Origin: Mesostigma viride
Lineage: Eukaryota > Streptophyta > Mesostigmatophyceae > Mesostigmatales > Mesostigmataceae
Reading direction: 5' to 3'
NCBI GenBank assembly: GCA_009746045.1
Contig: RPFO01000448.1
Coordinates: 3,144,049 to 3,208,048, forward strand
Length of the DNA stretch: 64,000 bases
A program made the translations under genes and the position numbers. Positions within the stretch are counted from its first letter, which is position 1; the number at the start of each line of letters is the position of its first letter. Under the pieces are notes generated by a model. The model was not told where the DNA came from. It did not search any database and saw only the letters and a list, made by a program, of their open reading frames with translations. Shown one piece after another: positions 10,622-64,000 of the stretch.

Positions 10622-13600
10622 TTAATCCAGGTCATGGTGCCCACTCAGCCCCCTTGCTCGGTACCGATCAGCACGGACGTCACCCATTGATGGGGGGGGC
10701 CTGTAACTGGACCCACCAAACCCACCACTCTTACGTGCGTTGAAGAACTGCCATATACCCACAAGGATCAGCGCGCCAATAAATCTGCACATGGACAGCC
10801 AGACGCCGCAGAGGTGTATAGAAAGCAAGTTCTTACATGACTAGTCAGCAATGATAATGCAGCTGGCATCCTCAGTCTGCGCTCCCTAGCGAGTTAGGGT
10901 GTCTCCAGTGAGGCATTCCAATATGACATGTATGGGCGGTCCCTCAGGCTAACGAATGGGGAGTTTGACCCTATGTATATTGAGTTTGAACCGTATTTCA
11001 TTTCCTCCCCCCTCAGCCATAGCGCTGATACAAGCTGACTGGATGCTTGATAGTGACGTGGTGGCGGTGGTGGTTTGGGGGGTTACATTGTCACGGGAGG
11101 TAGGTCAGTGCATGTACGCTGGCCTGCACTAGTAGCCTCATCCATCTGGCAGTGGCAAAGATAGTGAGGCAACACCCTGCATGCTTCCTGGGCTGACTAA
11201 CAGTACCGAATGCCGGCGCTCTACCAGCCCCGCACCGATGACCCAAAATGCCGTACAGCACTTGAATGCATTATTTACATGAATGATATCATTCTGTATG
11301 AGTGTATAACTCTTTGTGTGTTTCGTGTATTCCATATACACTACCATGGTCCGGAAAGGAAACCACAAATGCTGCGAATCAAAAAGCAACACACAGCCTG
11401 CAGCCAAGGTCCGGCAAAGTGTAAGACCCTCACCAAACTGGGCCTACACTAGCTGGGTGGCCAACCAACTGGCTGGCAGAGAGCGGGCGCTGAGGCGGCA
11501 GAAGGGGGGTGGGTTGTGTTGACAAAGGGAACTCCCAGGGATCAGGGATCCATGCAGGGCATCGACGACGGTTAAAGGGTGGGGAGGTATTGAGAGAGCT
11601 AAACGAAAGGAGGCGGGAGAGAGAGAAAAGGACGCAAATGGGAAAGATGGGGTGTCTTAGAGGAGGTGTATTAAGGGGGATGTTGGAGGAACAGCATTAA
11701 GGGGGTTGTAGGAGGAAGAGCATTAAGGCGCGTCTTGGAGGAAAAGCATTGTTAATAGGGGACTGCGTGCTGGCGTCATGGCACACCAACTATATACCCC
11801 CCCCGTTCCCCACCGCCCCCCCTGCCGCCCTGCCTTCCTGGAGATCACGCAGCTTCCTGCACAAAAGATACATATGGGAGGCTACTCCATAAAAGCAATG
11901 CCGTTTCCAGAATTATCGAATGCACATGGGGCTACCCCAGACTTACTATGTTTTTTCGAGGCAACCACTTTTTAACTCGAATCCCAACCGATTATCTAGT
12001 AACGCAGTCTCCAGCATCACTCAATATGTACCTAGGGCTACTCGCCTACTCCGGAGCTACTCTCGCATTATACTAATACTACTGTTGGAAAAACTGCTAT
12101 TTGTTTGGTTGTCCAGTCAATGTCCATGCGGCTACTCCAGAGCGTACGCATTCTTCCGCATTATATTACAACGCATTACTAGAGCAATCACTAATGGTAT
12201 TGTTGCGTATTTCACTTACATGGGGCTACTCCAGAGCTTTGCCGAGAACTCGGGTGGCGTCTGCACCGGCAGATGCGACTCGAAGAACGCCAGCATGCCA
12301 CCACCCAGGGACAGCGCCAGGAACTTGTTGCGGTTGCTGGCGAGCAGCGGCCAGGGGAGAATTGAGGGCCCTGGCCGACCGGATAGACCTGTGGTTAGGC
12401 TGCTGATCGGCACGGAGAGAACGTCGCGGGGGCCCCCGCGTGTGAGCGTGGTCGTGTTGAACACATGGACGTCGGTGGATGTGCCGATGATTCTGCACGC
12501 GGCCGCGTTCGATGGGCAGCATCCAGGAACGTGTTGAGGAACGTTGTTACAGAATTTGTTAAGGAAGGAGTATTAAGCAACGTGATAAGGAACGTTGTTA
12601 CAGAATTTGTTAAGGAAGGAGTACTAAGCAACGTGATAAGGAACGTTGTTACAGAATTTGTTAAGGAAGGAGTATTAAGCAACGTGTTAAGGAATGTGTT
12701 AGGGAACGTGTTAAGGAATACGTTCACTGAGGAACGTTGTTAAGGAACGCGTGCCACACCCGTCGCATGAAGGAGCATGTGCACCACATGGGCAGCAGCA
12801 AAGGGACGTCTATCACATGGGCCACAACGAAAAGCAACGCTAACAAAAATGAGCCACATGCCTTGGTAACATCGCCAAGTGGCAACGTGGAGTGGGTGGG
12901 TGTAGGGGATTAGAAGAACTGGAACCGCTCATTGAGACATGACTCTAGGTTGAAACAGCCCTTTGACAACCTTCTCCTCCTCTAAAAACCTCTTTGACAC
13001 TCCTCTCTGGAACACCTTTTTCCCCTTCAAAACACCTTTTTGAAAACCCTATTTCTCGTTCTCAGCAACTAGCAAGACCCAACTCCCCTTTGACACATTT
13101 CTTGAAACTACCCTTGCATACTAGAGAGGGAGGAAACATGACGCTGTGGCTGTCAGTGTTTGGAGATACGTTTTGGAATGAGGACAAGAATGTGAACAAG
13201 AAATGCAAAGGCCAGCTTTCTCATATTCGTAGGATCTTTCCGCGGCCCCACCCTCAAGATCATCTAGTCGCTCTTAGCGTAGCCAGCCATAATTTCAATG
13301 ACCAAGGCTACATATTTCCATCTTCATTCATATTCATCATCCTGAACGAGTCGAGAACGCAGATAAGATAACAGCACTCGAGCTACCATGGTCCGGAATT
13401 CTCAAGATTTCTGGCCTGCGCTGGTTGTCTTGTTGGTATTACGTATCTCGCCCCGTATTGTACGTATGTTCACCGTATTTGCCCCGTATTTCGAATACGC
13501 GGCAATATCAGGTCACGTGCTCATATTTACTGTATTCGTATTTCCAAGCGCTGGTGGGTGTACGTGGTGAACACCGCTCATGTGCTGCACAGTCATGCAC

Positions 13601-16600: not shown

Positions 16601-19275
16601 GAAACTATGTCACTTGGGGGCGAAATTATGGCACTTAAGGACGGGGCATGGGTGGTTAGGTGGCAGGAAGAAAGCATGGGTGGGGGTGGGGGGGTGAAAG
16701 GGACAAAATGGTGACAAAATGGGAAAGATGTTGTTCGTGTATACTTGACTAGTGCTGTAATTGAATATGTTGCACAATATTGCAAAGTAGGGTGCCATGC
16801 TGTGCTGTGATGTGCTGTGCTGTGCCATGCCACGATTCGCAAGGATGAAAAGATAAGATAATTGGATATAGAGATAAGATCATCGTAACTGACCAAGGCT
16901 ATGACACCCTTCAACATTCCATGCTTTATAACAATATAAAGATAACGATAGAACCGAGATAGGCTTTTAACCACCCTACAAGGCCAGCCAGCCTTCTACC
17001 CTTCTGTGACCGTTTTTGTGGCCTATTTGCTATGGCAAGCGCATGGCCAGCCTCAACATGCTTGGCCGGAGGCTCCCTAGACTGCTAGGCTGTGCGAGGG
17101 CAACCCTAGTTCCAAAAAATACCGACAGAAACATGACCAATGAGGCACACGGATGTCTACGGCAAGACTGCCCAAATTTGCAGTTTTTTTGCTCTTGCGA
17201 CATTTCTGTTCTTCCACTTGGTACTTCGCACCAACGTCACCAACCCAGGCACGGTAAGCTCTACGGCAAGTGCCGTTGCTGTCATCCCACCCTTCCGCTT
17301 GGTCCTTGTCGCTACCAACCCCTCCCTCACCGCATCCGCGCCACCGTCGTGTGTGCTATCTCCCGCAGCAGTCGCAGGCAGCCAGGTGCCTCTGGTCAGG
17401 ATGGTCAGGGGCTCTGCTGTGAGCACGTGGTGGTCCACTGCCAGGGCCACAACAGGACAAGGAAAAGGAGGGGGAGGGGGGGCGGGGGCAGGGGATAGTT
17501 TGATTAATAAGGGCAAGCATGTGGTGGTCCACTGCCAGGGCCACAACAGGACAAGGAAAAGGAAGGGGGAGGGGGGCGGGGGCAGGGGATAGTTTGATTA
17601 ATAAGGGCAAGCATGTGGTGGTCCACAGCCAGAACTGCAGCAGGACAGACAAGGGGCGCAAGGAAGCTAATTAATCAGGGAAGGCATGTGATTGTCCCCT
17701 GCTGGAGCCACGGCAAAGGCGTGCAGCAGGTCAAGGCATGCAGCGGGGCAAGGCGTGCAGCAGGTCAAGGCATGCAGTGGGAGGCATGCCCTCCCAAGGA
17801 GCTTGCCGCTTGGTGGTGATTCCGGCTCATGGCTGTGCAAGCAGGCAGTTAACGAGGAAGCGCGTGACATGGTGACGCGGATATTGGATACAACACCCCA
17901 CATTGACATCATCAACGCAGCCACGTCACCGTGCGGACGCACCCTCGGGCATGTCAGGGTCCTTGGCCACCTCCTCGAACACGCGGTGCGCGACTGTGGT
18001 GCCGTCCTGGTGCGCCACCAGCATGGTCGACTCATTGCGCTTGACGGGGTACGCCAGTATGCTGGTCACGGGGGGTAGGCTGCGGCCACCGCTACTGCTG
18101 CCGCCGTCCCCTTGTGGGCTGCCGTCCCCTCGCAAACTGCCGTCTCCTCGCAGACCGCCATCCCATGAAGCGTGGTCAGCTTGGGCTCTGTCGGGTGGAT
18201 CTTTCGCCCGCCCCCCGTGCAGATTGCTGGCGGTGTGGTGCTGGTGGTGGCCAGGCTCTGCCAGGTGCCCCAGGGAGGAGAAGCGGACCATGAACTCCCC
18301 GTGGGGCCGGAAGAGGGTGACGTCGCCAGAAGTGTCGCCGACGGCGATGTAGCGGGCGAGGCCGTCCATCATGTCCGGGTAGAGCAGGTGGAGCACGGTG
18401 GGCTGGGGGGGGGGTATATAATGGGAGCGCATAAAGTAGGAATAGACCATGATGTGAAGGTAGAGCAGGTGGAGCACGGTGGGGCTTGGGGGTTGATGGG
18501 GATTATGGTATCAAGGGCACGCAAGATAGGGGTAGTGAGGCGTTGCCTTAAAAAAATTATGGTGACAAGGAGGTGGAGAGCTGTGCTGCAGCCTATTACA
18601 TTACGCCACGCGGCACATACTTGACGCATTGTTTTCCCCACCCAGGCCCCACCTTGAGTGCGTCAGCAGTTGCAGGAGGGCTGGTAGATCGAACGCAACG
18701 CTTCGTAAAACCAGTGGGCGATAGGCTGGTAGACAGGCCAACCCATATGCCGATCGACAGCGCGACCCATAGCCATCTGCCGATCAATAGTTACAGTTTC
18801 GCAAGGCACCCGCCCAAGCGTTGTAGTGACCAGTATAGTGGCCCATGGGTCTAGTACAGTATACTAGTGCTTCGCAAGGCAACCGCCCAAAGGTTGTAGT
18901 GACCAGTACAGTGACCGATGGGTCTACTACAGAAGCTACGGCTTCGCAAGGCAACCCCCATACCCGACCGCCTGAACTGGTGGGGATGGGTGGGGTGGGA
19001 TGGGGGTGGGGGTGGGGGTGGGGGGGGGTGGGGTGGGGTGGGGGTGGGGGTGGGTGGGGTGGGGTGGGGGGGGGGTGGGGGTGGGGTGGGTGGGTGGGTG
19101 GGTGGGGGGGGGGGTGGGGGGTGGGGGGTGGGGGTGGGGGTGGGGTGGGGGGGTGGGGGGGGTGGGGTGGGGGGGGGGGGGTGGGGGTGGGGGGGGGGTG
19201 GGGGGTGGGGTGGGGTGGGTGGGGGTGGGGGTGGGGTGGGGTGGGGGTGGGGGGGGGTGGGGGTGGGGGGGGGGT

Positions 19276-19321
<46 letters not shown>

Positions 19322-22300
19322 GGGCTTTGGGGTGGGGGTGGGATACCAGCAGCCGAAGGGCGAAGATGCAGGAAGAGTAGCCACGGAAAGATCGACGGCA
19401 GTACATCAGTCCCCCCTTTCACATTGGTGCCATTCCCCAGTAAATATACTGTAGTATCGTAGTCAGTGATGGGCCATACGCGATACGCGTCGTACGCGGC
19501 CCCAGGTGTATAATGTATAATACGCGGTGTATAATGTATTATACGCTGATCGTACGCTAACCGTTGAAAACCCCTTTTTTGGCATGATTTTGAGGGGTTT
19601 TCAACATTCTGAGCAACCAAGCATAGTCTGCTGGTGTTTTTCCATACCTTTTGCCTATACATGACATATATAGCATGACCTTTGGCATTGCCACCACTAC
19701 CTAAATACAAGCTTAGTTTCTAACGGTCTAACTTGATATTTTCTCTTCAAAATCGAGACAACATGCAACTGAGTATCAATACCAGTATCAATGCACAACT
19801 CACTGGAAAGGATAATAAATTTGTAGAACTCAAGATATGCATGCACTATACATTGCCCCGAGGTGTCGATGACATTGAAGGGCGTCGATGGCATTGAAAG
19901 GCGCAAATGAATGCCTCGCACAGCTCCTCGTCCAGCTGCTCTTTGCTGAGCCCATAAGGTGCGGGCAAATTACCGTCGGTGGATTGGCCCTTTGATGATC
20001 CGCTTGGCCCAGCCGCCCCAGCAGCGCGCCCCGAGGTGCTGCTGGCATGAGCGGACACCCAGTTAAAGGCGTCGGTTTCTACAACGTCTGCAAGCCTGTC
20101 TTTAAGTGCCGCCCGCACATCAGCCTGCTTCTTGGCGTCACTAGTCGCCTTCCTCTTCCTGGTATTGCTTTCCTTCTCCGCCTGCTCGACCAGCAGCCTG
20201 TAACGGAGTACTCCATCATCCATGTAGTAGTTATTTGTCTGCTGCCGATTCTTGAGGATGCGCTCTTTGCTAATGTATGTCCAGACAGTTTCGGATGTGG
20301 CCTCTTCTTCATCGGGCCGCACATCATCATCGTGTTCCATTGACTCACGTGTCAGCCATGCCTGGATGTCGATATGCTACGATCTAGGTGCCAGACGACC
20401 ACGACGTTGCTGGCACACCTTATCACCTTCTTGATCCAGATAAATAGGTGTACGTTTATTTCCAAATATACTGTTGCTTATCACCTTCTTGATGATGAAT
20501 CTTCAGCCTTCCCGCCTTCACCTTCCCGCCTTCACAAGTCACAATGAACGCGCTTTTAGCTTTAGTGCACTATACACTAGCTAGCTCATCACGCAATTAT
20601 TTGTTCCTACTACAGGTCGGCGCGCCGCAGTCTAGGCAAGCAAATGCACCCACCTCGTAAGCCAAAAATATGCCAAAAATACGCGAAAATACGCAAAAAT
20701 GCGCAAAAATACGCGTATGATAAATATGCGTATGAAAGTACCCCATTTTCGTACGCGCCGCTTGCGTATCGCGCATAATACGCTAAATACGGCGTATAAT
20801 ACGGCGTATGGCGCATCACTGATCGTAGTACTGCTATATCCTATTATATAGAGACTGTTCCTAGCTATCTTTGTGAGGAATATTTGCACCCATCTACCTT
20901 AAGGGGCTCATGGTCCCACTGCTACACGCTCCCCGGTCTACAAGTAAGGACTATCGTTGGGCTCATTGTGGCATAAGTAAGGACTGCCGTTGGGCTTAGT
21001 GTGGCATTGGCTATTCTATAGTCAAAGAGTATAATAGACAGCCCGCACTATGCTGGGTTCATTGAAGCATTGGCTTCCACAACTCCACATTGCCCTCCTC
21101 CATGCAACCACGGGCTATGGCTTCGTAAGGCAACTCCCAGGTTGGTTTCCGTATTGTGCCCCTTCTGCCGACACAAGCAGACCATGTGTGAGAGCGTGTG
21201 TCAATAACGAAGCACTGGTTGTTTTAGGCACACATGCAAAGCTTCTTAAAGTTGGCGGTCGTGATCATCGAGCAGCTCCCTGTCGTAGCTAGAAACTACA
21301 AGTTCATAGGAGGGGTTGCCTTGCAAAGCCTTATATTTGACTTATCAGATACTTGAATAACTCGTTCTACATATCGCGGGCGCAACGGGACACAGTATGT
21401 CTCAAAGGGATGAAATCGAGCCTCCCTGGCCACGCAAACATCCATAGTAGCCCATTCTTTAAATCCATACCTGAGATGATAAAGATATAGAAGCACTAAT
21501 GATAAAAACATAAGATGCAATCCAGTCATATAACTACTTACCTCAGACGGGTCGTCCCCATCGCTGCCACCGTGAGGGAACCCTCCCGGTACAACCCCCC
21601 TGCCCCTGCCTGCCCCCGCCGCATGGGCGGACACCGCCGAGAGGAGGGCGAAGAAGTCTGAGAAGTCGTGGCGCAGCCGGAACCCTGGCCCTGCGATGCC
21701 CAGGGGCCCGCCAGCCGCAACGTCGCTCGCCAGGAGGAGCTCGTTGCCGACGACGGCGCCCCCAACCCCGTGCTGCGACGGGGCGCCGCCACCTGGCGCC
21801 GCCCCCTCCTGCACCTCCAGGCGCCCGGGCGGGTAGAACGGCTGCCCCGTCATCGGCGTGTGATGGCTGCTTCCAAGGCTGCTGGGGTGCCGCGGGGTCG
21901 AGTTTGGGCCATGGGCCACCCGGGTGGGCTGACTGGCTATTGTCTTGTCCATGCTGCGGGGCCGGGGGGGGGGGGGGGAAGGGGCAGGGAGGGCGGTTTC
22001 CATGCATCCAGGCCATGCCAGTTGATCCACAGGCAAATGGAAGTCATGTAGTTGACATTGATTGACCAGCAAACCATGGTCACCGCGGCAAGGTTCCACA
22101 GTGGCTGTCTCGCGAAGCCTTGCGTATACGTGCGCTCAGCCGATGCCGGCCGACGAAGGGCAGCAGCAGATCAGAGGCGAATTAATGGGCGTTGTGTATC
22201 CACCTAGGGATTAGCGCGACGAGCGAGGCAATAATGAAAATATTATGAATAGTAAAAATAACACTTATAATGTTGTAATTGATGTATCGAGGGCTTGAGG

Positions 22301-27543: not shown

Positions 27544-30500
27544 ATGCGGATGTTGTCTTCACTCGCAATAATAGATGAGGAGTCCCGGAAGACCCGCGAA
27601 TTGGTCAAGAAAATTGGGCATGGCATTGTCTTTTTCGGTTCTTCGAGAGTGTGCGAAGGAAGCATTTACTTGGAACGGGCGTCTACCCTCGGTCGCCAGG
27701 TACGTTTACACCGAACCTTCCGAGGCACAACTTCCGGCCGTCTCACGTAAACCATATCTTGCCCCAACTTTCGTCCGACAACTCGTGTCCATGCAGCCCT
27801 AATGTAGCATGCGTAGGTCGTGAGTGCCTTCCATTTGTCATGCTAACATCGCCATGTAATCCGCATATATCTCCCTCCTTCGTTAGCGACCAGTCAGCAT
27901 TGTATCCAACCCATTCAACGCTCGTCCCGGTCGGTCTACTGTTAATCCTCGAGGGAATCACATTGCTTGCTTTAAATAGGGAGGTGCTCCATAAGTCATT
28001 TCTACCATGCTGCTGGTGACACATGATTAGAAATCATATGTCGTTTCTCGTTTTTCACTGGCCAGCCCACACAAACCCCCAAGCACCCCCATGGCCATCA
28101 CTGGTATCACCCTTTCGGCACGGCCGCACCAGCAACCATGGGCACCACTCAAAGCGGTCACAGGGCTGTCTAAAGTATGCAGCGATGTTGGTATCACGCT
28201 GTTGCCTTCCCACTAGGTCACTCTCACAAAACGGACGCACTAGCATTGCCATGGGTATGGGTGGCTGTAAGCTGTACACCGCGTTAGGCCCTTGGCTATG
28301 CCTGCTCCGCTGGAATTGCTTGGCCTTTCTGGTCTGCTTCACCATGTGGGTAAAGCTCCTTGCGTCTACCTTCTCCCCAGCGAGCGGCGCAAACCGTCCT
28401 GGGTCAGGAGCTTCTTTCTGCTAGCCAATGCCTCTTTGCCTTTGTGTACTCTTCTTTGCCATGAGCTCAGAATCAGGCCTGTTCGCACAAGTGGGCTCAA
28501 AAGGATCCATACCATTTGCCATGACTGCACACGAATCATCAGTTTATAATTTTTATCGTTTTTGATACTATTATTCTGATCATACTATTATCATTATTGG
28601 GAAATGCACAGCCACGGTGTGTCCAACGCTTTGCAGGGCAACCACGTTTAAAATTTGTGAGATAGTCCGATTTTATAGGCCCTGCTTTTACCCGCCACCT
28701 CCCAACGGCACCGTGCTTTCCTTCCCTTTCACTCCGTAGTAAAGTTCACGTCATCGTGGCTGTCGGCCCGTGTTTGGCCATTCCTGCTCACGCTCATGAT
28801 CCTGGCGCCCGCGGTTTCGAACATGGCTGACCGTCTGATCACCACCATGGCCCAAACCACCATGACCTGGGATCACGCCCTCCTTTGTCCTTTCATTGGG
28901 ATTACATTCTTGCTCTAAAAACAGGTGGGCGTACTCCTGGACCGCCCGCTGTGGACCGGCGGCGGCCCTGGCATGATGGAGGCCGTGAGCAAAGGGGCGA
29001 TTGCTGCTGGCTGCCGCACCGGCGCGGTCAGCATCCTTCCCGAGGACGCGGATGAGTCGGCCGAGGAGGAGCACCCTTACTTGCAGCAGGGGACGTTCAT
29101 CTACTGCCGGACACCGCTGCGGCAAAAGGTGGGCAATCGGTGTACGCTTGGCGCTGGTTCGCTCGTGATGGTTGATGCTAGCACCCGTATGTGCACAAGG
29201 GCATCGACTGCCGGGCGCCGCTGCTGCCAGCGGTGGACCGTGTGCTTACTCAACCTGCGCGTGGTTGGCGGAAGGTAGGAGGGTGCAATCTTGTGGGGGG
29301 TGCTTTCTCGACCTGCACGTGGTTGACAAAAGGGGGGCGAAAAGTGCATGCTTGTGTGGAGGCACTCCTGCTGGGTGGCGCGCAGACATCATAGGGCTGG
29401 CCTTGCAAAGTCCGCAGGAGCGGTGTTTGGGGAACTAGTTACATGATGCGTGGTCATGGGATGCTTGTGTTGGTGCTTGTGGGCATGTTTGGCACGTGGA
29501 AGACTTTGGACGGGTCGGCTCTTGTGGGAGGGTGTTCTTGTTCAAGTATAGGGATTTTCGCATGCCCGACTTGCTTGTTGCCAAAGCCTCATCCATCCGA
29601 TTGGTGCATTGGGTGTTACAGTCCCCAACGCGCGCACCCACTGCACGTGTCTCATCCTTCGCAGACTTCTCATCCCTCTCTCGCTCGCCCCCGTCGCCCA
29701 ATGTTGCACATGCCGGGGGTGGGTTCAGGCGTATGAACTTCCGCAAGGATCAAACTTGCCCCCCTCTGTTTGCTCGTCGGTTCCCTCATTTCCGCCCCCA
29801 TTCCATATCCGCCTCCTCCCTCCCCCCCACCTTGACCTCCTCCCCCATTGTTTCCACATTGCTAAATATAATTCCCTACCGAAACTAAATGTTACCACTG
29901 TAATTTAACTTAGAGCCTTTCCACATATGGTGACGAATACGCGCGAATTAGGAGGACTCGGATTGGTCCGGACCGCAGTTCCAGGCTCGAGGTCTAATTC
30001 GGCGCGGCGAATAATAATAATTAGCGGTGAATTGATCGGGACCTCCTTTCCACAACCAGATCCGATCCGTACCGTCCTGGCGCTTTCCCCGCCGGTTTCA
30101 ACAACTCGACCTACCTTTCTTGACCCTAATTCTGACTGGAACTGGCCGGAACTGCTTTTTTCGAGTTCCAGGAGTTCCACCCCAGTTCCGGTCGAATTAG
30201 CGGTCGTATCCAATTAAATTTCTAATTGGACGGTCAAATGTGGAAACCTCTAGTTCCGGAACCGACTGAATCAGGACCCTAACTCCCCGGAACTGACGAA
30301 TGTGGAAAGGGTCTTAAACATCCGATAATTTAACTTAAGTATCCGATAATTTAACTTAAATATCCGATACCGTGTTCAATCTAAACGTTTCCCCGGTACG
30401 CAGGTGGGCCTGGTGGAGGCGGGCGAGCGCAAGAGCTCCTCGGACGTGACCGCCTACATCATCCTGCCTGGGGGTCTGGGCACCCTGTACGAGCTGCTGG

Positions 30501-32736
30501 AGGTGATCACGCTCGCGCAGATCCGCGGCAAGGACAGCAAGGCGCTCCAGATCCCTGTTCTCGTCATGAACTACGGTGAGGGATGGATTTATATAGTACT
30601 ACTAATACCTTGTGCTCGTCATGAGTTGCGGTGAAGGATGGGTGACGTAGTCTATACTGTACCACTGTTCCCTGGTCCTCGTCATCAACTATGGTGAGGG
30701 ATGGGTGCCATAGCCTGTATGGTACTATCTTTGATGATATTAGTGCTGGATGTTTTCTAACCTGTTTCTGCGAGTTGTTCGTCACCGGGGGGCTTGCTCG
30801 TCACCGTACGTCCACTGGGCAACTAAGGTGCCTTCCTGATATCCCGTGCTATGTTCTGTCGCATATATAAAGGTGTGTGCAATTATTGAATGCTGCGTAT
30901 CCACACCTTCCAGATGCCCCTGCGTGCGATGCGCTGGTCCGGCAAATAAGTTTTGCAAGGTCATGCTGCGACATTGACCCGCTGCGTGCCCACGTGTAAC
31001 TAAATGTCTTTTTCGGTTCTGGCCAGATCTGCCATGCCCGCTAGGTGATCCCTTAAATGGCTCGCGTAGGTTCCACAGAACCCGGTTCTATGAAATGCGT
31101 GCTATGCCTCTTATCCACATCTTTCGGACACCTCTGCCGAGCCCTGCCAGGTGATTTGTACGGGGGCATGCTCCGCTTTTTTGCCATGGAATCATGCTAG
31201 TCATCTTTACCTTTTGTGAAGCACTCACATCTAAGTAACTCGTTTTTTGTCCCGGATTCCCCCCTGAACTTTGTTGCTCCGCCAGACGACTTCTACGAGG
31301 GCATGCTCAGCTTCCTGGCCAAGTGCGTCGAGTCGGGAACCGTGGAGAATGGCAACGGGTCGCTGGACCAGGTCGTGGTCGCCTGCGACACCAACCTGCA
31401 GGTAGGGATGACCGGTCACCGGATACACTATATCAGGGTCACTTAACTCGTCAGTATACATGTTTTTAACTGCTAGCCAGTGTTTAAGAAACACGCCGCC
31501 CCGTGGCGTCCTTTCCGGCAGTAATGTCTGTGCCGCGGGCTGTTGGCTTTTGCCGACCGTTGCACCGTGCTACGATATCGTGCCTTTGTCTTTGCACGGT
31601 GTGCAGCTTTTCTTGGACATTTGGAAGCATTGCCTGGCTGACGTAATGAGTGGCATGACCTATTGATGGTAGCTCCATCGAGGGTGACTCCTCGTGTTGA
31701 ATGGCGGGAGAGCGATCGCAGCAGTGGTACTTACAACTGGACACTCCTGGCCGCTAGGAACAACTGCCCTGATTGCGCGAGGTTGTTTTTAGCTAGACCG
31801 TCTAGGTCTCGATGAACGTTAGCCATAATCTTTAATGTCCACGGCTACACATATTCACCTCCATTTCGATCATCCTGAACGTCTCGAAAACGCGGATAAG
31901 ATAACAGCAGGCTCGAGCTACCATGGTCCGGATTCTCGAGATTTCTGGCCTGCGCTGGTTGTCTCTTTGATATCCATCAATTACGGCACAGTAGCTTGTG
32001 GTCGCGTGCGGCGCCAACCTGCTGGTAGGGGCGGATGATTCTGGTGCATCACGGGCAGATTATGCATCGATTACGGCGTGGTAGGTCATGGTCGCCTGCG
32101 ACGCCAGGGTGCAGGCAGGAATGGGGTCAAATACGGTACGTCAGTTTCGCTATACTCTCTTCCACCTCTGTCGCTTACCTTGCTGGCCCTTAGCACGCTT
32201 CACCTGGCCGACTTCCGCAGCCATCAATTAGCACTGACCAGTGTCCTACTATCGTCCCATTCCCCCATGCGTATTGGATCTGCTTTTCTCTACAGGCGCT
32301 CAGGTACCTTACCGTCATCTACAACGTCTCAAACAGCAAACATGCGTAGTGCTGACTGTGTTTCCATTTTATTTGTGCGCTACCATGGTCCGGATTCACC
32401 CAGATTTCTGGCCTGCGCTGGGTGTCTCTTTGATAGTGCTGAGTGTTGTTTTGGTCTTGATCGTTCCCATGCTCCCTTTATTGCCTCGCCGGCCCCACAG
32501 GCGCTCGAGTACCTGGCCGACTTCTATGACATCTCAAGTAATAAACATGCATGTTACTGACATCTGTTTTTTATTGTCGCAATGATCCCTTAATTGCGTC
32601 GCTGGCCCCGCAGGCGCTGGAGTACCTGGCCGACTTCTACGACGTGTCTCCCGAGAAGCGGCGCACGTTCCAGGACGCACGCCGGTCCTCCCGCTCGCAG
32701 GGACGCTTCCTCTACGTGCCCACGTCGCTGTTCTAA
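27544..32736 (+). CDS. LOG / 'lysine decarboxylase-like' Rossmann-fold family protein
   Basis: Five exons modelled: 27544-27699, 28925-29128, 30404-30575, 31286-31401, 32614-32736, joining in phase to 256 residues. Seen: VFFGSSR (29-35), the first strand and nucleotide-binding turn; TGGGPGMMEA (63-72); and LPGGLGTLYE (141-150). The last two match the GGGxGxMEA and PGGxGTxxE signatures of the family (TIGR00730/COG1611), whose plant LOG members are cytokinin-riboside 5'-monophosphate phosphoribohydrolases. The PGMMEA form fits the broader COG1611 class better than plant LOG, so nucleotide phosphoribohydrolase activity is inferred. The start ATG at 27,544 is the first in the open stretch before VFFGSSR; an upstream ATG at 27,403 leads to a stop. 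No transit peptide is evident. Introns carry a MITE and many duplicated splice junctions. Divergent from the At1g75140-like gene. Confidence 0.85.
29097..29236 (+). repeat. degenerate duplicate of exon-2 donor (LOG-like gene)
   Basis: The exon end CATCTACTGCCGGACACCGC ... AAAAG/GTGGGC (29,097-29,134) is echoed 102 bases on by CATCGACTGCCGGGCGCCGC ... AGCG/GTGGAC (29,199-29,236). The copy keeps a GT at the equivalent position. Confidence 0.65.
29913..30313. mobile_element. PIF/Harbinger-like (Tourist-type) MITE
   Basis: The left end is GAGCCTTTCCACATATGG. The right end, reverse-complemented, is GACCCTTTCCACATTCG; the first 14 bases match except one. Both sides carry TTA (29,910-29,912 and 30,314-30,316), the TWA duplication typical of PIF/Harbinger. 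At 401 bp with no coding capacity and self-complementary GTTCCGG-rich arms it is non-autonomous. It lies in intron 2 of the LOG-like gene. Three copies of a TATCCGATAATTTAACTTA-like word follow it. Confidence 0.75.
30557..30711 (+). repeat. triplicated exon-3 donor junction (LOG-like gene)
   Basis: The true junction CTCGTCATGAACTACG/GTGAGGGATGG (donor 30,576) is followed by CTCGTCATGAGTTGCG/GTGAAGGATGG (30,631) and CTCGTCATCAACTATG/GTGAGGGATGG (30,694). All three keep GTGA donors. Use of the second would insert 55 bases, of the third 118; both shift frame. Confidence 0.88.
31822..31975 (+). repeat. dispersed repeat with ~52-bp core, second long copy
   Basis: Matches 13,285-13,435 over about 150 bases, ending in CCATGGTCCGGATTCTCGAG then TTTCTGGCCTGCGCTGG. 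Located in intron 4 of the LOG-like gene. Confidence 0.7.
31995..32125 (+). pseudogene. two decayed copies of the exon-4 end (LOG-like gene)
   Basis: The true exon end GTGGTCGCCTGCGACACCAA then CCTGCAG/GTAGGG (donor 31,402) recurs as GTGGTCGCGTGCGGCGCCAA then CCTGCTG/GTAGGG (GT at 32,025), and as ATGGTCGCCTGCGACGCCAG then GGTGCAG/GCAGGA near 32,115, where GC replaces GT. Both copies lie in intron 4. Confidence 0.8.
32171..32560 (+). pseudogene. decoy last-exon copies upstream of exon 5 (LOG-like gene)
   Basis: The true acceptor and exon (CCCCGCAG/GCGCTGGAGTACCTGGCC, 32,614) is preceded by two copies with intact AG acceptors. At 32,501 the copy encodes ALEYLADFYDISSNKHACY then stop. At 32,296 it encodes ALRYLTVIYNVSNSKHA then stop. 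A fainter piece (CACCTGGCCGACTTC) lies near 32,205. If spliced, each would replace the 41-codon C-terminal exon with a shorter tail in frame. Confidence 0.82.
32388..32438 (+). repeat. ~52-bp dispersed core, third copy
   Basis: CCATGGTCCGGATTCACCCA followed by TTTCTGGCCTGCGCTGG and GTGTCTCTTTGATA. It lies between the two decoy exon copies in intron 4 of the LOG-like gene. Confidence 0.75.
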
Positions 32737-36389: not shown

Positions 36390-36399
36390 GGGAGATCAT

Positions 36400-40702: not shown

Positions 40703-40861
40703 TCAAGGAGACAAACAGCGCAGGCCAGAAATCGGGAGAATCTGGACCATTAAAAGTAATTAATTAATTAGAAACACGACTCCGTTGGGAGTACATGTAG
40801 CACATAGCCCTGAGAAGGGGCATATGGCTTTTCATACATTCCGGACCATGGTAGCTCATAT
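40703..40861 (-). repeat. ~52-bp dispersed core, inverted copy split by a LINE tail
   Basis: TATCAAGGAGACAAACAGCG then CAGGCCAGAAATCGGGAGAA is the inverted core. It resumes at TCCGGACCATGGTAGCTC (40,844-40,861) after the LINE tail insertion. Confidence 0.7.
40755..40843 (-). mobile_element. short 5'-truncated LINE tail insertion
   Basis: About 90 bases of LINE 3' end (CGACTCCGTTGGGAGTACAT, GGGGCATATGGCTTTTCATA) with an AATTAATTAATT tail. It is flanked by GGACCAT on both sides, consistent with target-site duplication inside the dispersed core repeat. Confidence 0.65.
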
Positions 40862-42540: not shown

Positions 42541-42590
42541 TAGCTAGCAGTAGTGTAGATTAGTAAGGGTTTTAGCTTACCACGTGGCCC

Positions 42591-42869
42591 ATGCACACAC
42601 AACTGCTTGAAGATGCAGGGCTTCTGGGACTATCCGTACTCCGCGCCCGCATGATTGACAAGGAGAAATGGGCTGCCATCTGCATATGCGATAAGCACCT
42701 CCCCGAGGGGTATGCTCCTGTTTTCTCCCCACGGGCCCCGCGGCCCGTTGCTAGCCAGGGTAGAAGTCCGCAGGTGGAGGTTATTGGTCCTGAGGATAGC
42801 CGCTACACTACCGCCTCGTCTGCCATTACAGTAGAGGACAGCTCGGATGAGGATTACATCCCCATCTAG
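42591..42869 (+). CDS. hypothetical 92-aa frame, acidic C-terminus
   Basis: An ATG frame (MHTQLLEDAGLLGLSVLRAR) ends in VEDSSDEDYIPI. No family is recognised. Its position between two LINE copies suggests a scrap of another mobile element, but the acidic tail looks coding-like. Confidence 0.25.
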   Translation: MHTQLLEDAGLLGLSVLRARMIDKEKWAAICICDKHLPEGYAPVFSPRAPRPVASQGRSPQVEVIGPEDSRYTTASSAITVEDSSDEDYIPI

Positions 42870-42910
42870 TGCTTAACGGTTGGGGGATGATGCAGACGAT
42901 ATTTGTTTAA

Positions 42911-45900: not shown

Positions 45901-46197
45901 CAAGAGGGGTCACGTGCTGCTCGAAAGCTTCCTTGAGGAGGGTGCGGATGGTGGCTTCGGTGGGGAAGGTGGAGGGGGGCGGTTTGGGAGCCCAGATCTC
46001 GGCTTCGGAGCGTCCAACAAGGGAGCAGAGGGCGAAGCGTTGGAGCTTGGGGCGACTCATGCGGGGAAGGACGGGGAGAGTCTCGGCGGGGTCGACAAGC
46101 TGGCCAAGACCAGGCCCGCGGCCGCGGTTGTGGGACGTGAGGTACACGCACAGGGCTAGAAGCGAGGCGTGATTGCCGTGAAACACGTCGTCCATGA
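42911..46197 (-). mobile_element. 5'-truncated ORF1-only LINE element, split by a TTAA element
   Basis: The direct repeat ATATTTGTTTAA lies at 42,899-42,910 and 46,198-46,209. The (TTAAT)n tail is at 42,911-42,932 and the 5' truncation at 46,197 (peptide MDDVFHGNHASLLALCVYLT). The ORF1 C-terminal half is at 43,355-43,883 and the N-terminal half at 45,606-46,195. They rejoin exactly when the TTAA-flanked insert is removed. About 1.57 kb of LINE sequence remains. Confidence 0.85.
43888..45605. mobile_element. TTAA-flanked DNA transposon (piggyBac-like target), non-autonomous
   Basis: It interrupts the LINE ORF1 at GCTTAAGC: TTAA sits on both sides (43,884-43,887 and 45,606-45,609), and elements A and B show the empty site. 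Ends: left CTCTTAAACCGT, right (reverse-complemented) CTCTTCAACCGT. Subterminal AACGGACTGAGTTTG and TTTGTGCGCCT occur near both ends in inverted orientation. A TTAA duplication is the piggyBac hallmark, but the CTCTT terminus is not the classic CCC end. The 1,718-bp interior has no frame over 120 codons and no transposase I can name. Confidence 0.85.
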
Positions 46198-46299
46198 ATA
46201 TTTGTTTAAACTTTTGTGTAATTAAATTTTTCTAATGAGATTAGCATAGTACTCCGTGGCATGCCTTTGCGCATGACACGCAAGTACTTACTTACTTAT

Positions 46300-48480: not shown

Positions 48481-49408
48481 TGGCATTCATAGCGATTCGG
48501 GCCGTGGTGCCCACAACCCTGTAACTAGGACCTAGATAGCTTACATCATCCATTCCATCCCATGTTCGATCCCCTCCCACTGAGGACTTATGCTCACGTG
48601 ACGCAGTCACGTGTCTATTAATTAATTATGCACGCCGGGCCGGTGTCTCTGCCCCCACGCTAGATTGTTGTGCAGTGCTCAACCAGGGATAGAAAGCACT
48701 ACATTCCTTTGTATTATTGTGCTCCGCGAGCTCCCCGACGGGATTGCGTGTATGCAAGTAGTTCTACGTATATATCAAGGAGACAACCAGCGCAGGCCAG
48801 AAATCGGGAGAATCCGGACCATGGCCAGCCGAGCAGTAACTCAAGGTGAGGGCGCCCATGCACAAGAAAGCCTACTAATTGAACCTCAACAGTTCAACCT
48901 GGAGCCACCTTCCCAAACAAGCAAATCACTACACATTGGTGGGCCGGGCCTGAGGCTCTGGGAAGGAGATTTCAGCCAGAGGGTTCTGCATAGCTCATGT
49001 CTGCTGTGTTCAGAGCTGGCAATAAACTTATAGCCAGATTACAGTAGAGCATGCTTAGTCCATGACTCAAGTCTCTGATGCCCACAGTCTAGGCCTGACT
49101 GTTCCGAGCCCATTGGGAAAAGGTGGTCATGCTGGAACAGGCCGGTCACGGGCCGAAACGACCACGTGTCGACAGCGGGCGCCAACGACCCCGCTTGACT
49201 GCCGCCGAAGCTAGCATTAGGCGGAGCCTATGGGGTCAGCATGCTTGGGCGTAGCAGCAACAGGGTTGCAAAACCTTAATCCTCAAACCACAACAGACTT
49301 GCACAGCTAGGCTTTGTAATCATTTCAAAGTGCCAAGCATGCCACCTCCGCAAACGGCTGGCCAGTTAGCTTTTGGCAGCGTGTAGAAGACCAATCAATG
49401 TCCCCAGA
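48481..49408. other. no gene seen; one dispersed-core copy
   Basis: Only the inverted ~52-bp core at 48,775-48,826 (AAGGAGACAACCAGCGCAGG ... ATCCGGACCATGG) is recognised. The rest is probably 3' flank of the minus-strand gene ending at 49,409. Confidence 0.5.
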
Positions 49409-53065: not shown

Positions 53066-54629
53066 CTGGGGACAAGCCACCCCATTGGCTTGCAGCAGCA
53101 TAGGGCCAGGGCGCCAGCTGCCCTAAGCTACATAGCAAAACTATGTAAACAATTGAGAACAAGCTCCAGGATATGGCTTAACTGCCCCGCAATGTACGAG
53201 TACTGACAGTAATCACAACAATAATGGAAAATAGAAATAACAAGAACAGCAGTAGTGTGATAGCAACGCCGAATGCATCCCAACAATGCACGGTTGGTTC
53301 TACCGTTGCAGTCGCTATACGACATTCATGGATGTGTCGCAGCAGCTGTACTGTATTGTTTTTATCGTCACACAGCCACGATAAAAAGAAAGAAAAACCC
53401 ATGTTGTGCATAGCATCCGTGTGGCTGCGTAACTGTCGTCACCACCGACCGCCGACAAGAGGAAATCACGAGCCTAAACCACGCAGGAATGCAGCAGTTG
53501 CCCGGAAGGGCAACGAGACCCAGCGCAGTCCTGGTACAACACTCATTCGCCATGTCCACTGGTAACCTGTGTGGGTCTCATGGGGCCTAGGCACTGCTCC
53601 CAACCATTTTCTTTACTTGCCACAATGGTGGTTTCTTCATCTGAATCATCAGCACCGAGAATATTTTCAAGGAAAATGAAGAGGGAAGGGAACGTACCGG
53701 GTTGGACGTGACCAGCAGAGTGCCAGTGGCGGCGAGTGCACCCGACAAGGCTGTTGGGTTCCAAGGAAAAAGTCACGGAAAGGGGCCATGGGAAGAATAC
53801 AAGGTCAACGAAGCATCGTAAAAATACAAAGAAGACGTGACCTTGGGGGCAGGAGGTTTGATTTCATTAGCTGGGGCAGGAATGTCAGGATGATGATATA
53901 ATGGGCGCATATAATAGGAGGAATGTCAGGGCAAGATGATGATCAAATAGGAAACGGCGTGATAAGATAGGAAACTGCGGCATAAGCTTGCACAAGATTG
54001 GAAACGGCGTCTGAAGCTGAGCAAGTCTTGGCCTACTAAGCTGGCCTACAGTGTGCAATGGCAGCTGGATCAATGCTGTGGAATGTATGAATGAGAGCGC
54101 CCCACAGCAAGTGGACCCAACACCATAGGTATCATAAACAGGGCAATTGATCTACGAAATAATTCATAGCTAGTCAGAAACGGCACGGTGCATCCTTCAG
54201 TTTACTTCACACACACTCTCCATGGTCCCACACACCCAATTTCGCTATGCACATTGCTCCCTGCCCCCTACATCCCCCTTTTCCTTCCCCAGCCATTTCC
54301 CTTCTATTCCCCCCCCCCCCCCCCCCCCCCCCTAACTCAATTCCTTTCCCCTCAACTCCTGTCATTCCTTTTTTTTTATGTGGCAAGAACGGCAAATAAC
54401 ATTTTTTAATGTAGTCAATCGATAATTTTTATGTATTCTGGCAAGAATGCTGAGGTACTATTCCTTCCACCACATTTGCATCCGACGTTTCCTCCGACCC
54501 TTGCCCCATTGCCCATGCAAAGGCCACCGACCTGATCCAACACGACGTACAAAACACCAAACCCAGCAATCTCTTCCTCAGCTCTCCCCACTCCTGACCG
54601 CCAAACCCCACACCTGAAACGCCCAATAC
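53066..54629. other. probable 5' exons or promoter of the CxxC gene; not resolved
   Basis: Two possible exon pieces on the minus strand (53,140-53,207, YIAGQLSHILELVLN; 53,702-53,757) lack confirmed partners. A run of about 20 C lies at 54,311-54,332. Nothing else is recognised. Confidence 0.35.
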
Positions 54630-56322
54630 ACCCTAAACACCCGAAATACCCGAAACACCCGAAAAACCCTGAACACCCTGAACACCCTGAACACCCTGAA
54701 CACCCTAAACACCCTGACCACCCTGACCACCCTGACCATCCTGACCACCCTGACCACCCTAATCCCCCTAACCCCCCTAACCCCCCTAACCCCCCTAACC
54801 CCCCTAACCCCCCTACACACCCTACACACCCTACACACCCTACACACCCTACACACCCTACACACCCTACACACCCTACACACCCTACACACCCTACACA
54901 CCCTACACACCCTACACACCCTACACACCCTACACACCCTACACACCCTACACACCCTACACACCCTACACACCCTACACACCCTACACACCCTACACAC
55001 CCTACACACCCTACACACCCTACACACCCTACACACCCTACACACCCTACACACCCTACACACCCTACACACCCTACACACCCTACACACCCTACACACC
55101 CTACACACCCTACACACCCTACACACCCTACACACCCTACACACCCTACACACCCTACACACCCTACACACCCTACACACCCTACACACCCTACACACCC
55201 TACACACCCTACACACCCTACACACCCTACACACCCTACACACCCTACACACCCTACACACCCTACACACCCTACACACCCTACACACCCTACACACCCT
55301 ACACACCCTACACACCCTACACACCCTACACACCCTACACACCCTACACACCCTACACACCCTACACACCCTACACACCCTACACACCCTACACACCCTA
55401 CACACCCTACACACCCTACACACCCTACACACCCTACACACCCTACACACCCTACACACCCTACACACCCTACACACCCTACACACCCTACACACCCTAC
55501 ACACCCTACACACCCTACACACCCTACACACCCTACACACCCTACACACCCTACACACCCTACACACCCTACACACCCTACACACCCTACACACCCTACA
55601 CACCCTACACACCCTACACACCCTACACACCCTACACACCCTACACACCCTACACACCCTACACACCCTACACACCCTACACACCCTACACACCCTACAC
55701 ACCCTACACACCCTACACACCCTACACACCCTACACACCCTACACACCCTACACACCCTACACACCCTACACACCCTAAACGCCCTACACACCCTACACA
55801 CCCTAAACACCCTACACACCCTACACACCCTACACACCCTACACACCCTACACACCCTACACACCCTACACACCCTACACACCCTACACACCCTAAACAC
55901 CCTACACACCCTACACACCCTAAACGCCCTAAACACCCTAAACACCCTAAACACCCTAAACACCCTACACACCCTACACACCCTAAACACCCTAAACACC
56001 CTAAACACCCTAAACACCCTAAACACCCTAAACACCCTAAACACCCTAAACACCCTAAACACCCTAAACACCCTAAACACCCTAAACACCCTAAACACCC
56101 TAAACACCCTAAACACCCTAAACACCCTAAACACCCTAAACACCCTAAACACCCTAAACACCCTAAACACCCTAAACACCCTAAACACCCTAAACACCCT
56201 AAACACCCTAAACACCCTAAACACCCTAAACACCCTAAACACCCTAAACACCCTAAACACCCTAAACACCCTAAACACCCTAAACACCCTAAACACCCTA
56301 AACACCCTAAACACCCTAAACA
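54630..56322. repeat. 9-bp telomere-like satellite array (CCCTACACA / CCCTAAACA)
   Basis: About 185 head-to-tail 9-mers. The order along the plus strand is a short mixed zone (CCCTGAACA, CCCTGACCA, CCCCCTAAC; 54,630-54,812), about 1 kb of nearly pure CCCTACACA to 55,780, a mixed zone, then CCCTAAACA from 55,916 to 56,322. The CCCTAAACA unit contains the plant-type telomere heptamer CCCTAAA plus CA. The period divides by three, so frames of up to 650 codons stay open on the minus strand; they are not genes. Confidence 0.97.
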
Positions 56323-57094
56323 CTCGTACCCAAACCCACTCCGACAGTGTCTGGGCATCCTACACATAGGATCTTATGGCCAAGTCCGAAGCCTGCCGAA
56401 AGAGGCCCAAAATACTACGACATCGGTGGTGGGACACACATGATGGGTCACTGGGTCATGCCATGGATGCCGATGATCCTCGGACATACCGAGGTGTTCT
56501 AGTACGAGAGGGGTGAAGCCAAGTGAGCAGCAAACGAGCCTGTTGACAAACCGATCACCAACTTGTTGACAAACTGGCCAAAAACTTGGCCACGCCAGCA
56601 AGCTACAACAAACGATGACAATCAATGAGAAAACGGTGACAGTGATAAACAAAAATGACAAACAATGACAAAGAAGCGGTGCCCCAGGGACCCACCGATG
56701 GCAAACGCCACGCCAGCTCCTGCAGCGATGGCGATGGCGATGGAAACGGCAGCCGCGCGATGGGCACCGTCCGTGGGGAAGTGGTGCATGATGGGAGCGA
56801 GATCCACACCGAACAACCCATGAAAAAACAATCCATGGATGGGGTTCATGAAGGGGGGCCATTAAGGGGGAGTAGGAATGGGGGTGTGCCGTGTATGGGG
56901 CGCATGAATGGTCACCCCCACGTGTGGCATGGCGTGGAGCCGTCCGGATGCCAGCAATTTGTTGGCGTGATAGCCCGGTGCCGTTTGCAGTGGTTGGACA
57001 TCATGTGATAGGCCATCACGCAATGCAAGTGTGTGTGTCTAATTGTGTGTGACGTTTGTGAAATGGCACGCGCCAAAGAGCATCGTCGGGCAGC
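56323..57094. other. no confirmed gene
   Basis: One minus-strand frame at 56,690-56,840 is strongly hydrophobic (AAAVSIAIAIAAGAGVAFAI) and is followed by a GTGGGT donor, but no acceptor precedes it. Left unassigned. Confidence 0.35.
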
Positions 57095-61337: not shown

Positions 61338-64000
61338 ATGGCCGAATGCATTTTGCGAGCAACCTCAAGTACGCCCACTCATGGCCTGGGCATCCGCGCC
61401 GCAGCTCCGTCTCGCAGGAGTTCGTCCTTTCAAGGGGAAGCCGTGCAGGTTGCACCCCGTCCTGGTACATCCACGCTGAAAATCAAAAGCAGGCCAGTAA
61501 CAGAATGCTCATCTACGGGATCTGGCGTTCTTGGAAAGCTCGGCAGGATGTTTCAACAGAAGGTCAAGAGCGATTATGATCGCATCTTCAAGGGAGTCAC
61601 GAAGACTCGCGAGAAGTTGGCCGTTGTTGATGAGCTTCTCGGGTACTACACAATGGACGAGAAGGAGAGCATTTTGGAGGAGCTCGAAGAAGCCCTGCTG
61701 CTCTCAGATTTTGGCCCCAGCACTTCGTTCAAAGTAGTGGACAACCTTCGTGACACCATCATTGCCAAGAAACTCAAAACCGGCCCTGAAATCAAGGCCG
61801 CTCTGAAAGACCAGATTTCCAAGATTTTGAATAAGAAGGGGATGAACTTTGACTTGACGGTCGCAACATCCCAGCCTAGTGTCTACATGATTGTCGGGGT
61901 AAATGGGGGAGGGAAGACCACGACGATTGGCAAGCTGGCGAACATGCTCTCTCGGCGAGAAGAAGGGGAAGGTAGCAATGCCCAGGGAGAAGCCAAAGTG
62001 ATGCTGGCATCTGGCGACACGTTCCGCGCTGCGGCGGGTGAGCAGCTTGAAAAATGGGCTGAGCGGAGCGGGGCTACCTTTTTCGATGTGAAGGACAGCC
62101 GACCAGCCACCGTTCTATTTAATGCAGTGCAAGCTGCGGAGAAGGACGGCTACGAGTATGTCATCTGCGACACCTCTGGACGTAAGTAAAGTTGGCTGGT
62201 GCTTTTCAACCCAGCATGGAACATTGATTAGTAATCAGAAATACGATTTTTAGGAGTGAAGTCGGCAATGCAAATGTGCTTCTGTGCTTGATGGGTGGAT
62301 AGTAAATACTTCATGTCCGTGGATGAATGGCTGTGGTGTCTCCAGGATATATATAAAAAAAAAAACAAGCGGAGTCTACAACGCGATTCCTTAGTTTAGA
62401 AATCAAGACATGCGCATATTTGGTGTAGTGTCTGATCAGAGCGACTCACTTGATGTCAGAATTTGGATGCAGGCACTCTTGACATGAAGCTTCTATCAGG
62501 GATTATTAGGGTTGTCATGATGATGAAGCTTTTTAGAGTTATTGGGGCGAGATGTGAATTAGGGCTAATTAGGGTTCTCAGGCGTTTTAGGGCGAGATGT
62601 GCCTCAAGGGGAGGTGGCTGGCTTCCCTGCTTTCCCCGACGGGGCTGTTCACGGGGACAACTTGCATACTTCCCTGATCATATTGTTAGTGCCGCAGGGG
62701 CTGTGTGTTTCATGCTTCTCGTGAGACGGATGGCCAGCGTGGGTCCTGGGGGAAATGGGGCAGTCTGCATCCGGTACGGCGCTTGACTTTGGAAGTTATT
62801 GTTAGGGTGGTCAGATTCTTTTTCTTATTTCTTTTTCTCATTTTATGAGGCGACGGGACACGTCCCTGTGGGATCTGTTTCTGCTAAACAAAGGAAGAGT
62901 TCCCGTCGATAATCCCCCCCCTATTCACCCCCTTAATTATCCCCTGATTACCCTCTCTATAATTGTCATGTCTCAACGGTATCACGCGATCTCGTCCCAG
63001 TTAACTACGGGTACTTTCTTTCTAAGCTTTGAATCCTGTGGGCAGTCCCCTTTCAAGCGCAACTTCTCTACACACGGAGGCTCATGCTGCACAGCAGCGG
63101 CTTTGCCAGGCACGCATGCCTTGCCCCACCACCCTTTTTTTCCCCCCAATGACTACCAGTTGTATCTGACGCTTTCCCTCGCTCAGCTCACATGGCTACG
63201 CATCGTCCCCGCGATGCATCGGTGTCAACCTGTCCCTGTGTTCACGTGCGCTGTCCTGTGTCCACGTATGCCGCTACGGCACCTTGTCTGTCTTCCCTGC
63301 CTGAACGTGCTTTGATATATTCCTGGTCACGCCCCTTGGGCATGCATCCAACGTTTCATACGGATGGGAAGCTCTGTGACCTGCGAAAAGGTGGCAATCA
63401 CATGGGGGCAAATAAGAGGGGGCCGAGAGGGCCCCTCAAAAGTGTGCGAGAAGGTTCAAGATCGCTTGCTTATTGACTTATTTTTTCCCGCCCGGCCATG
63501 CGCATGCTTCATCAGGCTCTTTTTCGTCCGCCTGAAATGCCTGGCTGTTTGATCATTTGGATTATGCTTGGAGTGGATCACAGGGCACTGTCAGCGCTGC
63601 GTAGTGAGGGTGTTAGCCAGAACCGCTTGTTCTGGCCATCACCTTGCTAACGCACCAACACCCTCCCGCCTTTCACCATTATTTCCTTCCCCCCCTTCTG
63701 CAAGGCCGGCAAAGAAGGTTGACATTTTTCCACGGACAGTCAGGGGGGCAGCCAGGATTACGCGAACCCCTCCCCACTCCATACCGTGTGGCCATTCGTT
63801 CTTCCCCCCTTGTGGTCTCGCTTCCATTTCATACCCCGCTTGCCAGGCCTGCACACCATGCCACTTATCCCTCCTTGTGCCCGCTCTTTCCTCCCTCTGC
63901 CAGGCCTCCACGCCAACTTACGTCCTCCCCCCCTGCGTCCCCCCCCCCCCCCCATTCCAGGCCTGCACACGAACTTTGACCTGATGGAGGAGCTGGCCAA
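61338..64000 (+). CDS. CPFTSY: chloroplast SRP receptor FtsY (N-terminal part; runs off the window)
   Basis: Exon 1 is 61338-62181; exon 2 begins at 63961 and continues past the window. Donor GTAAGT and acceptor CCATTCCAG; the junction keeps phase (GGA C / GC CTG) and reads TSGRLHTNFDLMEELAK. Start at ATG 61,338, in a CGAAAATGGCC context. Seen: about 60 Ser/Ala/Arg-rich residues as a likely chloroplast transit peptide; the N domain (VVDELLGYYTMDEKESILEE); G1 loop GVNGGGKTTT (about 187-196); DTFRAAA; and G3 DTSGR with LHTN, the plant-type form. FtsY is the GTPase receptor that pairs with cpSRP54 to insert light-harvesting proteins into thylakoids. About a quarter of the protein, including G4 and G5, lies outside the window. 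Identification is secure. Confidence 0.97.
63840..63985 (+). repeat. 57-base-period triplicate of the FtsY exon-2 acceptor
   Basis: AG acceptors end at 63,846, 63,903 and 63,960, exactly 57 bases apart. Each is followed by GGCCTSCAC: GGCCTGCACACCATG, GGCCTCCACGCCAAC, and the true GGCCTGCACACGAAC. The first two are decayed upstream copies of the exon start. Both upstream copies would keep exon 2 in frame if their 57 or 114 bases were read through. Confidence 0.8.

What the first reader, a model, noticed from the sequence alone, without database searches (positions are those of the whole stretch)
10622..64000. Recurrent tandem duplication of exon-intron junctions in unrelated genes
In at least three independent genes the sequence spanning a splice junction is duplicated into the adjacent intron. 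LOG-like: exon-2 donor (x2), exon-3 donor (x3), exon-4 donor (x3), exon-5 acceptor (x3). At1g75140-like: exon-2 donor (x2), exon-4 acceptor (x2), exon-7 donor (x2), exon-9 donor (about x4). FtsY: exon-2 acceptor (x3). Periods run from 28 to about 200 bases. Copies always lie on the intron side and degrade with distance. That so many junctions are affected suggests a local process, such as replication slippage or end-joining biased to junctions, or splice-linked breakage, that builds introns outward from exons. Tandem duplication of AG/GT-containing exon sequence is an established idea for intron gain; here it would be intron growth.
Basis: partly seen in the sequence, partly recalled or inferred. 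Interest (0 to 1): 0.88.

Follow-up and report, generated by a model that had tools for sequence, protein, structure and literature searches.

The report
Introns growing outward from splice sites
In this green-alga-like genome, short DNA stretches that straddle the border between a gene's coding piece and its intron have been copied again and again into the neighbouring intron, far more often than intron DNA elsewhere, which suggests that introns here lengthen from their edges.

Summary
In the window's genes, 8 of 24 splice-junction windows have a direct copy within 200 nt in the adjacent intron, against 99 of 1,316 intron windows. In 33 other gene regions (TCP1, SRP54, kinesin), 28 of 111 donors and 9 of 109 acceptors do, against 4.9% and 2.7% of intron windows and 0 of 164 exon-interior windows. 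Counted as events, 26 arrays straddle 106 donors where uniform placement predicts 3.5; among copies at least 94% identical, 8 against 0.7. Copies are direct only (inverted 0/220) and confined to the adjacent intron. Donor-like motifs inside introns (26/520) and stop codons (0/20) lack the excess. Introns with arrays are longer (868 vs 579 nt). Best reading: ordinary short tandem duplication whose birth, or immediate survival, is focused on splice junctions, donors above all, so introns grow from their edges. Whether the cause is junction-focused breakage or a splicing-based filter is not settled. One genome, predicted junctions, no RNA data, no related genome available.

The parts
27544..32736 (+). 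LOG-like gene, exons 27544-27699, 28925-29128, 30404-30575, 31286-31401, 32614-32736
   Evidence: joined translation matches PF03641 at 8.2e-19; first exon start is a guess
29098..29236 (+). LOG exon-2 donor (29128|29129) original 29098-29132 and copy about 29202-29236
   Evidence: score 35, offset 104
30552..30725 (+). LOG exon-3 donor (30575|30576), original 30552-30586, copies about 30608-30640 and 30669-30704
   Evidence: score 50; self-BLAST
31146..31321 (+). LOG exon-4 acceptor (31285|31286), original 31281-31321, copy 31146-31186
   Evidence: score 37, offset 135
31370..32123 (+). LOG exon-4 donor (31401|31402), original 31370-31410, copies 31998-32030 and 32083-32123
   Evidence: score 47; self-BLAST
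32292..32643 (+). LOG exon-5 acceptor (32613|32614), original 32582-32643, copy 32469-32530, older copy 32292-32363
   Evidence: score 80, offset 113; self-BLAST
18366..18492 (-). Fourth defined exon of the - strand gene, acceptor at 18402, original 18366-18410, copy about 18447-18492
   Evidence: score 60, offset 82
17422..17632 (-). Next exon of the - strand gene, acceptor at 17437, copies of about 94 nt
   Evidence: TRF 2.2 copies, 96% matches; score 77, offset 94
11876..12237 (-). Exon-9 donor of the - strand gene (12220) with one clear copy about 12125-12143 and further weak ones
   Evidence: score 33, offset 94; weak copies by eye
63834..63970 (+). FtsY exon-2 acceptor (63960|63961), original 63948-63970, copy 63834-63856, third copy by eye near 63897-63915
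   Evidence: score 31, offset 114; sequence; PF00448 in exon 1

Best explanation
These are direct tandem duplications of DNA stretches (median offset about 97 nt at donors) that straddle exon-intron junctions; a median of 27 nt comes from the exon and the rest from the intron. The used exon copy stays; the extra copy falls inside the intron, drifts, and is sometimes amplified into arrays, so the intron lengthens from its edge. Shown in the sample: direct orientation, adjacent intron only, a peak at the junction, an excess at donors over intron background, over donor-like intron motifs and over stop codons, and both young and old copies. Inferred: the birth of duplications (or their survival in the first generations) is concentrated at junctions, most plausibly because paired nicks or staggered breaks form there in transcribed, splicing chromatin and are filled in and end-joined, with splicing then weeding out duplications that carry much exon or that lure the spliceosome.
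For: Windows: donors 28/111 against 57/1158 intron windows (OR 6.5, p=3.6e-11), acceptors 9/109 against 31/1143 (p=0.006). Events: 26 straddling against 3.5 expected at donors, young (>=94%) 8 against 0.7; acceptors 10 against 2.6, young 2 against 0.5; gene-level resampling 4.5-12.6-fold and 1.8-6.3-fold. Positional peak at the junction. Real against donor-like motifs 26/105 vs 26/520. Stop codons 0/20, p=0.007 against donors. Inverted 0/220, far-side intron 0/219, other genes 1/2107. Straddling arrays are no older than intron-only ones (8/26 vs 5/22 at >=94%), so slower loss does not explain the excess. Longer introns with arrays, n=16 vs 37, p=0.002. A donor array shared by two kinesin paralogs has been renewed within each gene. 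Paired nicks giving tandem duplications are described in PMC8355091 (passages).
Against: No RNA, no breakage data, no related genome. Without the complexity filter the donor excess shrinks (30 straddling, 41 intron-only). Young arrays are also common in one intergenic sample (0.39/kb against 0.79 in the donor zone; 0 in the other sample). Stop codons cannot be told from acceptors (p=0.35). The sample is 33 gene regions of three families; junctions are predicted. Breakpoint microhomology was not resolved.
Confidence: 0.5

Rival explanations
1. Even duplication, splicing-based selection: short tandem duplications arise evenly over genes, but those that repeat the local splice-site context are tolerated or favoured (redundant or decoy sites, alternative splicing) while others are lost.
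For: 38/48 donor copies and 16/17 acceptor copies keep a usable-looking site. Short exon share (KS p=1.7e-6 against uniform) and donor over acceptor bias (p=0.001) look like a splicing filter.
Against: Splice dinucleotides in old copies are kept 83/88 against 895/1020 for other non-CpG exon bases, p=0.08. Duplications deep in introns should be neutral and so at least as dense, but are not.
Confidence: 0.2
2. Exons as a whole are prone to duplication (chromatin, methylation, base composition); events inside exons are purged and only those reaching into the intron are seen.
For: No exon-only array in 211 segments, as purging would give.
Against: Exon shares would be uniform over the unit; they are short, and 0 of 5.1 expected donor arrays carry 78 or more exon bases. 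Stop codons, also coding edges, show 0/20. Donors exceed acceptors.
Confidence: 0.15
3. Duplication is even; junction copies are only easier to recognise because the exon copy is frozen by selection.
For: The expected inflation is about two-fold (reasoning), and the peak at the junction is about two-fold above the +20 to +100 shoulder.
Against: Stop codons with an equally frozen side show none.
Confidence: 0.13
4. Assembly artefact.
For: One assembly with some near-identical duplicate contigs.
Against: Median copy identity is 0.90 at donors and 0.87 at acceptors, the excess is junction-specific, and two diverged paralogs share an array.
Confidence: 0.02

Closest known systems
[quoted passage not shown] passages read)
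   Same: Direct tandem duplication beside or across splice-site sequence, leaving the protein unchanged.
   Different: There a new intron is made from exon sequence; here existing introns are lengthened, and the duplicated unit already holds exon, splice site and intron.
Internal tandem repeats at exon-intron boundaries of human segmental-duplication genes (PMC2812944; passages read)
   Same: Repeat arrays that straddle exon-intron boundaries and can offer extra splice sites.
   Different: Reported for recent human paralogs as variable repeats with novel introns; in the passages seen no excess at junctions over intron background is measured.
Small tandem duplications from repair of paired nicks or breaks with 3' overhangs (CST, Pol alpha-primase and end joining; PMC8355091, passages read)
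   Same: Direct duplications, typically under 100 bp, without need of a mobile element.
   Different: A general repair outcome at induced breaks; no link to splice junctions in the passages seen.
Introners (PMC9860276, abstract start seen in the listing)
   Same: A source of intron sequence within one genome.
   Different: Introners insert copies of themselves into many genes; here copies stay beside their own junction (other genes 1/2107).

Membership tests
AGGT tandem-duplication intron gain | Direct duplication in the same orientation | tested here: met
   direct 37/220, inverted 0/220
AGGT tandem-duplication intron gain | The duplicated unit is exon sequence and a new intron results | tested here: not met
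   in the alignments read, units hold exon, splice site and intron; the junctions exist already
Minisatellite / internal tandem repeat at an exon-intron boundary | Head-to-tail units that straddle the boundary | tested here: met
   contiguous arrays, e.g. 76-nt and 48-nt units; others are scattered single copies, so only part of the set is a true array
Minisatellite / internal tandem repeat at an exon-intron boundary | Variable copy number between alleles or individuals | not testable with these tools
   only one assembly; C622 and C2 are 99.96% identical over 4,484 nt
Nick- or break-repair tandem duplication | Unit size of tens to about a hundred bp, direct | tested here: met
   offsets of straddling donor arrays 57-299, median about 97
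Nick- or break-repair tandem duplication | Fill-in or microhomology signature at the ends | not tested
   too few clean two-copy young events
Introner | Related copies in many genes | tested here: not met
   1 of 2,107 cross-gene comparisons, junction windows only

The most novel reading that the evidence does not exclude
Splice donors in this lineage are DNA fragility sites: transcription and splicing (for example R-loops or pausing at the donor) bring paired nicks, and their repair ratchets intron length outward from the exon, so that splicing itself drives intron growth and keeps supplying cryptic splice sites.
Probability: 0.3. Interest if true: 0.88.

Novelty: new variant of a known kind. 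Interest (0 to 1): 0.72.

Why it matters
Why introns lengthen is usually answered with transposons and drift. A duplication process focused on splice junctions would be a distinct, directional source of intron growth, would seed introns with cryptic donors that carry real exon context, and would tie a gene's splicing to its own mutation pattern. It can be tested in one genome with long reads and RNA-seq.

Tried and rejected
Even duplication with only a detectability bias: rejected for donors, not excluded for acceptors. Donor-motif or G-run driven instability: not supported by donor-like intron motifs and a regression. Spaced templated insertion or RNA-mediated reinsertion: considered because many copies have non-matching spacers; the lack of inverted copies (0/220) and, in one case read by eye (C1407:82672), similarity continuing past an indel favour tandem duplication. 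Allelic comparison: C622 and C2 are 99.96% identical and uninformative. One script failed on an empty sequence and one timed out; both analyses were rerun (58 and 60).

Rows used and dropped. TCP1: 53 of 58 matches used (dropped: one intronless on C2011, three on C1641 that duplicate C887, one lone hit on C1106). SRP54: 9 of 15 (dropped: three intronless on C2011/C1006, three of the window's own FtsY gene). Of 118 exon matches, 111 gave a testable donor and 109 a testable acceptor; 106 and 105 had enough intron for the event count. Stop codons: 20 counted (three of them of the window's genes, one with only 192 nt of target), none above score 24; four dropped because the frame ran into intron or the end was unclear (C887:341605, C1568:1213561, L062, L064). 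Window: 24 junctions of 12 introns; left out are the first, fifth-to-sixth and last introns of the - strand gene and FtsY intron 2. Intron control windows rich in one base were skipped. Junctions were called from profile matches plus GT/AG rules, not RNA; one is off by 20 nt as read by eye (C1579:5609200) and the stop edge of the - strand gene by one.
Full report
Setting. The window is bases 3,144,049-3,208,048 of contig C1215 of a 439.9-Mb, 2,243-contig assembly. Its size fits Mesostigma viride (441.8 Mb, 2,363 scaffolds, mean intron 1,142 bp; PMC6947507, passages read); the identity is inference. The passages shown by a text search of that paper for intron, tandem, contigs, scaffold and repeat (12 of 20 places) do not mention junction duplications.

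Observation. LOG and FtsY are supported by Pfam; the At1g75140 name is not. 9 of 24 junctions have a copy at score 31 or more over the whole intron. Within 200 nt it is 8 of 24, against 99 of 1,316 intron windows and 0 of 23 exon-interior windows (p=3e-4).

Independent sample. Because the window was picked for this feature, I tested other genes. Exon matches to TCP1, SRP54 and kinesin profiles were fetched in part, and junctions were called by reading frame and GT/AG. With copies sought within 300 nt and low-complexity matches removed, 28/111 donors and 9/109 acceptors have a copy, against 57/1158 and 31/1143 intron windows, and 0/84 and 0/80 exon-interior windows. False matches are rare: 1 of 2,107 comparisons with introns of other genes; none of 220 matched inverted; none of 219 matched the intron on the far side of the exon.

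Shape. Scanning 40-nt windows through donors gives a peak at the junction (23/104), a shoulder of about 10% to +100, about 3-8% deeper, 2/103 at -60 and zero at -80 and beyond in the exon; acceptors show a smaller peak (9/102). Clustering self-matches into arrays gives 26 arrays across 106 donors and 22 wholly within 68 kb of adjoining intron; uniform placement predicts 3.5 straddling. Limiting to copies at least 94% identical gives 8 against 0.7. Acceptors: 10 against 2.6, young 2 against 0.5. Without the complexity filter there are 30 straddling and 41 intron-only arrays at donors, 11 and 42 at acceptors. Resampling by gene region gives 4.5-12.6-fold for donors and 1.8-6.3-fold for acceptors; 18 of 33 regions have at least one.

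Controls that bear on cause. Donor-like motifs inside introns, of similar G content, have copies in 26/520 cases against 26/105 for real donors. Stop codons, coding edges with a frozen copy but no splicing, have 0/20 (p=0.007 against donors, p=0.35 against acceptors). Introns are not poor in duplications compared with intergenic DNA: 0.41 per kb against 0.10 (window) and 0.49 (tile flanks), with 2.4 in the donor zone; for arrays at least 94% identical the figures are 0.08 against 0 and 0.39, with 0.79 in the donor zone, so against the tile flanks the young excess is only two-fold. Straddling and intron-only arrays have similar ages (8/26 and 5/22 at >=94%, p=0.75), which points to a higher birth rate or an immediate filter rather than slower loss.

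Anatomy. Exon parts are short: median 27 nt, maximum 71 at donors, with a median offset of 96.5 nt; uniform breakpoints are rejected (KS p=1.7e-6 donors, 0.004 acceptors). Some arrays are contiguous and young (76-nt unit about four times in C1468; 48-nt unit many times in C1702), others are scattered diverged copies. Two kinesin paralogs (L030, L031) share a 70-nt donor array while the intron beyond it no longer aligns; the first two units are 100% and 94% alike within each gene and 84-87% between genes, so the array has been renewed since the genes split. Copies mostly keep usable-looking splice sites (38/48 donors, 16/17 acceptors), but not significantly beyond other bases (p=0.08). Introns with an array are longer (median 868 vs 579 nt; n=16 and 37; p=0.002); longer introns may also be easier to score.

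Interpretation. The data show intron lengthening by tandem duplication focused on splice junctions. I favour a mutational focus (paired nicks or staggered breaks, filled in and joined, as in PMC8355091) combined with a splicing-based filter, which would explain the short exon share and the donor bias (28/111 vs 9/109, p=0.001). The filter alone, or exon-wide proneness, is less likely but not excluded. For acceptors the modest excess could still be a detectability effect.

Print. Nine term searches of the open PMC library listed intron-gain papers and boundary repeats in human paralogs (PMC2812944, passages read), but I saw no report of a junction-focused excess in those listings. Subscription papers were not searched.

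Noticed in passing
window 54628-56323: A 1.7-kb array of a 9-bp unit (ACACCCTAC, about 188 copies, 97% matches) with unit variants in blocks.
   Followed up: no
window 18979-19342: A 364-bp run of G-rich GGTGGG-like repeats inside the - strand gene's intron.
   Followed up: no
window 31917-31972, 32379-32435, about 13380-13440, about 48780-48840: A dispersed element of about 57 nt, 93% alike between the first two places and seen by eye at the other two.
   Followed up: partly
window about 34900-46200: Several similar - strand open frames (shared FEREILDRMG..GEI..AAHRLPRARGKAG stretches) and repeated ends rich in TTAATTAA, which look like non-LTR retrotransposon pieces (label recalled, not tested).
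   Followed up: no
G000 contigs C2011 and C1006: Intronless SRP54, TCP1/GroEL and proteasome-type matches, which look like a bacterial contaminant contig (inference).
   Followed up: partly
G000 contigs C622/C2 and C1641/C887: Near-identical duplicate stretches: C622 and C2 are 99.96% identical over 4,484 nt; C1641 and C887 show TCP1 matches with the same scores.
   Followed up: partly
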